Of a stretch of 64,000 nucleotides of DNA, positions 29,745 through 30,356 are shown piece after piece (position 1 is the first letter of the stretch; each line of letters opens with the position of its first letter). The position numbers and the translations under genes were made by a program. Under the pieces are notes generated by a model. It did not search any database, was not told where the DNA came from, and saw only the letters and a program-made list of their open reading frames with translations. The stretch is from positions 50,915 to 114,914 of the forward strand of contig JAFUIS010000013.1 of the NCBI GenBank assembly GCA_017468365.1, written 5' to 3'. The DNA is from Oscillospiraceae bacterium. Lineage in GTDB: Bacteria > Bacillota > Clostridia > Oscillospirales > Ruminococcaceae.

Positions 29745-29785
29745 AGAAAAAGCGGACGGAATAAAATTCCGTCCGCTTTTTCGGT
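29745..29785 (-). terminator. Terminator of the small membrane protein gene
   Basis: Perfect 11-bp stem AGCGGACGGAA/TTCCGTCCGCT with a TAAAA loop and a T-run on the minus strand. Confidence 0.88.
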
Positions 29786-29823: not shown

Positions 29824-30090
29824 TTATGCGGCTCTCATGCCGTAAACCGCAGCGATGCGGCGGGCTTTTTCGCGTCTTTCGCGGCGTTTCACTGCCTCAA
29901 TGGCTCTGGTGCAGTTGATGCTGCCCCAAACACCGATGCAGGCTGCAATAAAGGAAATTCCGCCGTAAACGAAAATTTCCATGTTGCTTACGTTTCCGAA
30001 GTCGCTGGCACCCGCAATGCCAAGAACGGAGATGATTCCTGCTGCTGCCATGATTTTAAAGATTGTGTTCAAAACATATGTTCTTTCCAT
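29824..30090 (-). CDS. Small two-helix membrane protein under LexA-like control
   Basis: An 88-residue protein with two hydrophobic helices (about residues 9-29 and 39-59) and a strongly basic tail (EAVKRRERREKARRIAAVYG), so the tail is probably cytoplasmic. It has an AGGAAAGGA site, its own promoter and a strong terminator. Two GAAC-N4-GTTC boxes flank the promoter, which suggests induction by DNA damage. In other bacteria, small SOS-induced membrane proteins (YneA of B. subtilis, SidA of Caulobacter) block division. No sequence likeness to those is claimed here. Division control is inference. Confidence 0.75.
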   Translation of the reverse strand: MERTYVLNTIFKIMAAAGIISVLGIAGASDFGNVSNMEIFVYGGISFIAACIGVWGSINCTRAIEAVKRRERREKARRIAAVYGMRAA

Positions 30091-30124
30091 TTTACTACGT
30101 CCTTTCCTGTGCTATCTATGGGGG

Positions 30125-30151
30125 TGTTCGATAAAATCGAACATCTGTTCT
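30125..30151. promoter_or_regulatory. LexA-like box overlapping a palindrome, downstream of the -10
   Basis: CGAACATCTGTTCT (30138-30151) has a perfect GAAC-N4-GTTC core and fits 12 of 14 positions of the B. subtilis LexA box. Its left half also forms a second perfect palindrome, TGTTCGA-TAAAA-TCGAACA (30125-30143), so three half-sites alternate. Confidence 0.75.
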
Positions 30152-30165
30152 TTGTTTGTGACTTT

Positions 30166-30193
30166 ATTATATCACCCAATTTTTAAAAATCAA
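30166..30193 (-). promoter_or_regulatory. Promoter of the small membrane protein gene
   Basis: TTGATT (30188-30193) and TATAAT (30166-30171), 16 bases apart on the minus strand, framed by the two LexA-like boxes. Confidence 0.75.
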
Positions 30194-30212
30194 TAGGTTT
30201 TTCGAAAAAAAT

Positions 30213-30226
30213 CGAACAATCGTTCG
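30213..30226. promoter_or_regulatory. LexA-like box upstream of the -35
   Basis: CGAACAATCGTTCG, with perfect CGAAC and GTTCG half-sites separated by four bases. It lies about 20 bases upstream of the -35 on the minus strand. Confidence 0.78.
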
Positions 30227-30356
30227 TGTTGGTACAAAAATGTCGCAACAAATTTTTTTCAAATAAAATTGCTGTTAAATCATTACCTGAAAAATCACCC
30301 AAAACAGCCGAAAAAAGTCGGATTTAAGGCAAAAAGCTTTTTTATTGGCTAAATCG

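What the first reader, a model, noticed from the sequence alone, without database searches (positions are those of the whole stretch)
29824..30226. LexA-boxed small membrane protein, a possible new SOS division inhibitor
Seen: an 88-residue, two-helix protein with a basic tail, one promoter, and two GAAC-N4-GTTC boxes, one upstream of the -35 and one just after the -10. The lower box overlaps a second perfect palindrome. Known: LexA boxes of this form control SOS genes in Firmicutes, and small SOS-induced membrane proteins (YneA, SidA) stop division. Inference: this is an unrelated-looking protein doing a similar job.
Basis: partly seen in the sequence, partly recalled or inferred. Interest (0 to 1): 0.75.

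Follow-up and report, generated by a model that had tools for sequence, protein, structure and literature searches.

The report
Damage-switched two-helix membrane protein family
A small membrane protein of no known family in a gut bacterium sits behind switches that DNA damage should release, and many distant relatives keep such switches, so it may be an emergency brake, perhaps on cell division.

Summary
The 88-aa ORF (29824-30090, minus strand) has two predicted membrane helices and a basic tail. Two GAAC-N4-GTTC boxes flank its promoter; a third box (GAACATATGTTT, as at lexA) covers codons 3-6. The host has LexA, and recA, uvrB and lexA carry such boxes. In 14 of 14 same-genus homologues all 24 half-site columns are invariant, against 59 of 184 other upstream columns. 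Of 42 examined profile hits outside the genus, 14 have a strict LexA box and 2 a near-box. Sixteen (one near-box case included) have another palindrome, TGTCC-N8-GGACA, exactly 10 nt before a -10-like hexamer; the same arrangement precedes recA in two genomes without a LexA hit over the cut-off. Eleven have neither. Pfam, NCBIfam, PHROGs, PADLOC and PDB sequences give no match over a cut-off. LexA control is near certain. The division-inhibitor role is plausible (about 0.5) but untested: nothing seen in the sequence or neighbourhood points to a division protein. Predicted topology (both ends inside) differs from YneA and SosA. A new variant of a known kind: a small damage-induced membrane protein, from an apparently undescribed family.

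The parts
29824..30090 (-). 88-aa two-helix membrane protein with basic tail ending in RAA
   Evidence: ORF; hydropathy; homologues in 14 of 15 same-genus genomes
30139..30150 (-). lower LexA box, GAACAGATGTTC on the coding strand, just after the -10
   Evidence: invariant half-sites in 14 genomes
30214..30225 (-). upper LexA box, GAACGATTGTTC on the coding strand, upstream of the -35
   Evidence: invariant half-sites in 14 genomes
30072..30083 (-). third LexA-type box GAACATATGTTT over codons 3-6, same sequence as a box at lexA
30166..30171 (-). -10 hexamer TATAAT
   Evidence: conserved in the 14 genus promoters
30188..30193 (-). -35-like hexamer TTGATT
30125..30143 (-). perfect palindrome overlapping the lower box; would form a hairpin near the 5' end of the transcript. 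GTTCGA...TCGAAC is kept with changing loop length in 13 of 14 genus homologues (not G061), which fits a stem-loop better than a second operator; the leader as a whole does not fold better than shuffles (z -1.0)
30101..30107 (-). ribosome-binding-site-like GGAAAGG
29747..29781 (-). terminator-like hairpin with T run after the gene
   Evidence: read

Best explanation
The gene is a LexA-repressed SOS gene (about 0.93). LexA dimers on the boxes flanking the promoter, and perhaps on the box at the start of the coding region, keep it silent; RecA-driven LexA cleavage after DNA damage releases it. The product is a two-helix membrane hairpin with both ends in the cytoplasm (predicted), a conserved GASD-type turn outside and a basic tail inside. 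I think it most likely acts as a transient membrane checkpoint effector that delays septal wall synthesis, for example by packing its helices against FtsW/FtsI (about 0.5), and that in several lineages its C-terminal -AA allows quick removal by a ClpXP-type protease (about 0.4). Shown here: LexA in the host, the boxes, their conservation, no match to a known family. Inferred: induction, topology, target, turnover.
For: LexA and RecA in the host; boxes at recA and uvrB and at lexA. 14 of 14 genus homologues keep three boxes; 24 of 24 half-site columns invariant against 59 of 184 other upstream columns. 14 of 42 examined hits outside the genus have a strict box, while 7 strict boxes occur in 286,857 flanking bases; in g49, g69, g14, g76 the box lies just after a -10-like hexamer, with different neighbours. 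Two hydrophobic stretches and a basic tail in 11 of 11 members computed. C-terminal AA in 14 of 14 genus members and, counted by eye, in 5 of 15 box-bearing relatives outside the genus (14 strict and G091), against 1 of 184 background ORFs. YneA acts through its helix on FtsW (PMC13396833, abstract).
Against: No division gene recognised nearby, no expression or phenotype data. 11 of 42 examined hits outside the genus have neither motif. Most genomes of the family show no homologue (40 of 396 do). My pattern found a box at lexA in only 2 of 8 family-f1 relatives examined (G059, G091; the start was clearly mis-set in at least G161), though near-boxes are visible in G131 and G076. Predicted topology is unlike YneA and SosA. 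In 10 of those 15 box-bearing relatives the C-terminus is not AA.
Confidence: 0.5

Rival explanations
1. A LexA-controlled membrane toxin that depolarises the membrane and slows growth (works like TisB; name and mode partly recalled) rather than a specific division inhibitor.
For: Small, hydrophobic, strongly basic, tightly boxed. TisB appears as a dormancy-inducing membrane toxin in a listed paper (PMC11575346, search listing).
Against: One copy in 14 of 15 genus genomes and no plasmid relative look like a core gene rather than a mobile toxin; no antitoxin RNA was looked for.
Confidence: 0.2
2. A LexA-controlled membrane helper with another task in damaged cells: envelope stress, protease adaptor, transporter subunit, or phage exclusion.
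For: The sequence names no function; phage-like modules carry relatives.
Against: None direct.
Confidence: 0.25
3. The boxes belong to another regulator, not LexA.
For: The same pattern occurs inside a different repeat (GAACATATGAACAATTGTTCATATGTTC) 3 nt before an ORF that looks like an ArsR-type regulator (my reading) at C3:109729; genome-wide the pattern is no commoner than its control.
Against: The boxes match those at recA, uvrB and lexA, straddle the promoter and recur in other genera in the usual operator position.
Confidence: 0.05

Closest known systems
YneA (Bacillus subtilis) and ChiZ
   Same: Small SOS-induced membrane protein of a Gram-positive bacterium; YneA acts through its helix on FtsW (abstract)
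   Different: YneA and ChiZ have one helix and an outward LysM part; here two predicted helices, no LysM match, tail predicted inside
SosA (Staphylococcus aureus)
   Same: Small (77 aa), SOS-induced, membrane-bound
   Different: SosA has one helix and an outward C-terminus that is a likely CtpA target; direct sequence comparison not run
SidA and DidA (Caulobacter)
   Same: Small damage-induced membrane proteins, one under LexA and one under a LexA-independent regulator; this family too appears under two kinds of switch
   Different: 29 aa (SidA) and 71 aa with a single helix (DidA); sequence comparison not run
DriD and PafBC promoters (WYL activators)
   Same: Like DriD sites, the TGTCC-N8-GGACA palindrome of distant relatives overlaps the -35 region at a fixed distance from the -10
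   Different: Sequence differs from the DriD site ATACGAC-N7-GTCGTAT; PafBC uses a -26 motif; no WYL protein was searched for here

Membership tests
LexA (SOS) regulon, Gram-positive type | LexA and RecA encoded in the host | tested here: met
   LexA 188.8 bits over the 110.95 cut-off; RecA 563.8 bits
LexA (SOS) regulon, Gram-positive type | GAAC-N4-GTTC operators at the promoter, conserved with the gene | tested here: met
   14 of 14 in the genus; 14 of 42 examined hits outside it strict, 11 of 42 with neither motif
LexA (SOS) regulon, Gram-positive type | RecA-dependent induction by DNA damage and LexA binding | not testable with these tools
   needs experiment
YneA / ChiZ | LysM domain | tested here: not met
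   no LysM match in Pfam scans of the window protein and of 20 family members
YneA / ChiZ | single helix with outward C-terminal part | tested here: not met
   prediction only: two hydrophobic stretches, basic tail
SosA | single helix and outward conserved C-terminus | tested here: not met
   prediction only, features; sequence similarity to SosA not tested
SOS cell-division inhibitors as a functional class | blocks septation when expressed | not testable with these tools
   needs experiment
WYL-activated damage promoters (for the X motif of distant relatives) | palindrome overlapping a poor -35 at a fixed distance from the -10 | tested here: met
   16 of 42 examined hits outside the genus by a rule that itself demands N10; without that demand the best -10 fell at N10 in 14 of 15 X promoters scored, recA of G723 and G689 included; the fifteenth, G864, scored best at N8
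WYL-activated damage promoters (for the X motif of distant relatives) | WYL regulator present and binding | not tested

The most novel reading that the evidence does not exclude
This is a clostridial DNA-damage checkpoint protein family that stays wired to damage sensing while the wiring changes. LexA boxes control it in several genera of one family. In sister families it is driven by a separate promoter type (TGTCC-N8-GGACA placed 10 nt before the -10), shared with recA in two genomes where LexA is not recognisable, and perhaps read by a WYL-type sensor of single-stranded DNA, as didA is in Caulobacter. Phage-like elements carry copies in early recombination modules, as lambda carries kil (recalled).
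Probability: 0.35. Interest if true: 0.87.

Novelty: new variant of a known kind. Interest (0 to 1): 0.72.

Why it matters
How bacteria of this group hold division during DNA repair is, as far as I know (recalled), unknown. This gives a definable sequence family with testable operators and a short conserved core in uncultured gut bacteria (five homologous records are titled Oscillospiraceae). If the second promoter type is confirmed, it would also point to a LexA-independent damage response in Clostridia that includes recA, with this small gene as a ready-made reporter.

Tried and rejected
Chance was rejected on conservation and placement, not on box counts, which alone prove nothing. Known families: Pfam, NCBIfam, PHROGs, PADLOC and PDB sequence searches gave no match over a cut-off; the lowest E-value over the 20 members was 0.0015, to TctA, in Pfam. 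Mobile origin of the window copy: no relative in viral contigs for the window protein or two relatives, none in plasmids. One box-less relative is 98.3% identical over 60 aa to a human faecal phage record; another found no phage record.

X motif: my first pattern had the wrong spacing (N7) and was useless. With the right spacing and 2 mismatches the total over 13 genomes (45 matches, my sum) is no higher than the reversed control (49), so most such matches are chance; I count as X only sites with a TAnnnT at N10. The rule was drawn from the class-level hits and then counted on them. Of 7 order-level loci not used to draw it, 3 fit; L085, outside that count, fits too. G076 and G166 hold a TGTCC-N8-GGACA palindrome without a -10 at N10 and are not counted as X. 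Two X-like places lie roughly 200 and 430 nt before XRE-like genes (my reading), not in their promoters; not used.

Counts and dropped rows: one search examined 42 of 65 matches outside the genus (22 of 37, 13 of 13, 7 of 15). The 15 dropped had no locus from that call; among them two phage-like copies in G013 were read separately and have no box. The 8 dropped were one with a broken frame and seven with E of 0.001 to 0.01. Profile A2 was built from A1 members and hits, leaving out box-less ones, so the LexA fraction is partly circular; G059, G153 and G166 are box-bearing hits not in A2. The background (18 of 249) was discarded because it included intergenic regions shared with the family gene; one search replaces it. 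In one search, draws on loci under 3000 bases were skipped, so the control denominator is somewhat under 20,000.

Full report
What is there. The 88-aa ORF at 29824-30090 on the minus strand is preceded by a promoter (-35-like TTGATT 30188-30193, -10 TATAAT 30166-30171) with one GAAC-N4-GTTC box upstream and one just downstream. A perfect palindrome overlaps the lower box (30125-30143). A terminator-like hairpin follows the gene (about 29747-29781, read), so it is probably transcribed alone.

Is it more than chance? Not by counting: 3 boxes in the window against 1.25 expected, and 38 places in the genome against 42 for the reversed pattern. The case rests on function and conservation. The genome encodes LexA and RecA. 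AT-rich boxes sit before recA and uvrB (GAACAAATGTTC), at lexA (GAACATATGTTT and GAACATATGTGC) and just before a gene with a helix-hairpin-helix motif (GAACATTTGTTC).

Homologues in the genus. 14 of 15 genomes, own included, have one copy; the fifteenth is 73% complete. All 14 keep both promoter boxes and the third box. In their alignment 24 of 24 half-site columns are invariant, against 59 of 184 other upstream columns. The codons under the third box are AGA ACA TAT GTT in 13 of 14 (ACG for ACA in G061); from codon use in the window that choice has a probability near 0.009 in one sequence. The divergent neighbour differs: a 361-aa ORF in some genomes (such as G154), a 524-aa-class ORF in others (such as G222). 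So the boxes follow the small gene, not a fixed neighbour.

Homologues beyond the genus. A profile search found matches in 33 of 396 genomes of the family, a second profile in 40 of 396; in order and class 15 of 295 and 14 of 291, own genome included each time. Of 42 examined hits outside the genus, 14 have a strict LexA box, 1 a GTTT variant, 1 a GTTT variant plus the other motif, 15 the other motif alone, and 11 neither. Control windows from the flanks gave 115 strict boxes and 12 X motifs in up to 20,000 draws. In g69, g14, g76 and g49 the box lies a few bases after a -10-like hexamer, while neighbours differ: an aspartate carbamoyltransferase-like gene, a YebC-like gene, or a phage-tail-like and a PhoU-like gene (names are my reading of the sequences). 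Against a tidy picture: in 8 f1 relatives my box pattern found a lexA box in only two, G059 and G091; at least one start was mis-set and near-boxes are visible in two others.

The second motif. Class- and order-level relatives have TGTCC-N8-GGACA with a TATAAT-like hexamer 10 nt downstream. In two f43 genomes, G723 and G689, the same arrangement precedes recA. Neither has a LexA hit over the cut-off: G723 has none, G689 two partial ones. Against a simple replacement of LexA: four f76 and f55 genomes have LexA over the cut-off with GAACATTTGTTC boxes at lexA, yet the small gene there has the X motif. Against generality: genome-wide the relaxed pattern is no commoner than its control, and of the 13 genomes searched recA turned up behind it in two. 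The site overlaps a poor -35 at a fixed distance from the -10, which suggests an activator. The Caulobacter WYL activator DriD binds that way (PMC12340889, passages); mycobacterial PafBC uses a -26 motif (PMC11804915, passages). The regulator here is unknown.

The protein. The 11 members computed have two hydrophobic stretches, a short loop after the GASD-type core, and a tail of net charge +2 to +13, so both ends are predicted inside. All 14 genus members end in AA, as do 5 of 15 box-bearing relatives outside the genus (by eye), against 1 of 184 background ORFs: a possible ssrA-like degron (recalled motif). Pfam, NCBIfam, PHROGs, PADLOC and PDB sequences hold no match over a cut-off.

Box-less relatives. 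Several lie in phage-like early modules: L108 beside Gam-like and SSB genes, and L061, L066, L076, L081 and L087 in similar-looking surroundings (my reading). The L061 protein is in a human faecal phage record. Lambda kil, a phage division inhibitor, also lies near recombination genes (recalled); this is suggestive only.

Mechanism. LexA repression relieved by damage is near certain. What the protein does is inferred. Small damage-induced membrane proteins that block division are a known theme: YneA binds FtsW through its helix and blocks septal wall synthesis (PMC13396833, abstract), and SosA (PMC6851548, passages), SidA and DidA (PMC4211646, passages) are others. A short, conserved, tightly repressed membrane hairpin fits that theme. 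Its predicted topology differs from YneA and SosA, whose C-termini lie outside; YneA is cut by CtpA and SosA is a likely target (PMC6051672 passages). An inside C-terminus ending in AA would fit ClpXP instead. I recognised no division gene among the neighbours I read.

Literature. My eight searches show no description of this family in the titles and abstract starts listed. The gut SOS meta-regulon paper (PMC3998124, part 2 of 3 read) lists SOS COGs; the part I read does not mention such a gene. These searches cover open-licence papers only.

Noticed in passing
L208 and L209 (recA of G723 and G689); L148, L150, L151, L154, L074, L079 and others: TGTCC-N8-GGACA palindrome exactly 10 nt before a -10-like hexamer, upstream of distant relatives of the small gene and of recA: a possible LexA-independent damage promoter in Clostridia.
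   Followed up: partly
G000:C3:26844 (L180); L195, L207, L192: The same X arrangement before other genes: in the host genome before an ORF without a tested function (TATAAT at N10), in G822 before ORFs of 295 aa (L195) and about 214 aa (L207), and in G119 before a 49-aa ORF.
   Followed up: no
L108 6048-6281, L109, L061, L066, L076, L081, L087: Box-less relatives sit in phage-like recombination or replication modules; L108 lies beside Gam-like and SSB genes, and the L061 protein is in phage record MT836198.1.
   Followed up: partly
window 30225-30260: Upstream of the upper box the genus alignment keeps a GGACA...GCACCAA-like stretch that is not part of any LexA box; unexplained.
   Followed up: no
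L009 about 2220-2250 (G000:C3:109729): A longer repeat GAACATATGAACAATTGTTCATATGTTC 3 nt before an ORF that looks like an ArsR-type regulator (my reading): the bare GAAC-N4-GTTC pattern is not specific to LexA.
   Followed up: no
L005 2025 (G000:C12:2025): A good LexA-type box GAACAAATGTTC 274 nt before a 483-aa ORF with no Pfam match at E 1e-5; possibly another SOS gene.
   Followed up: no
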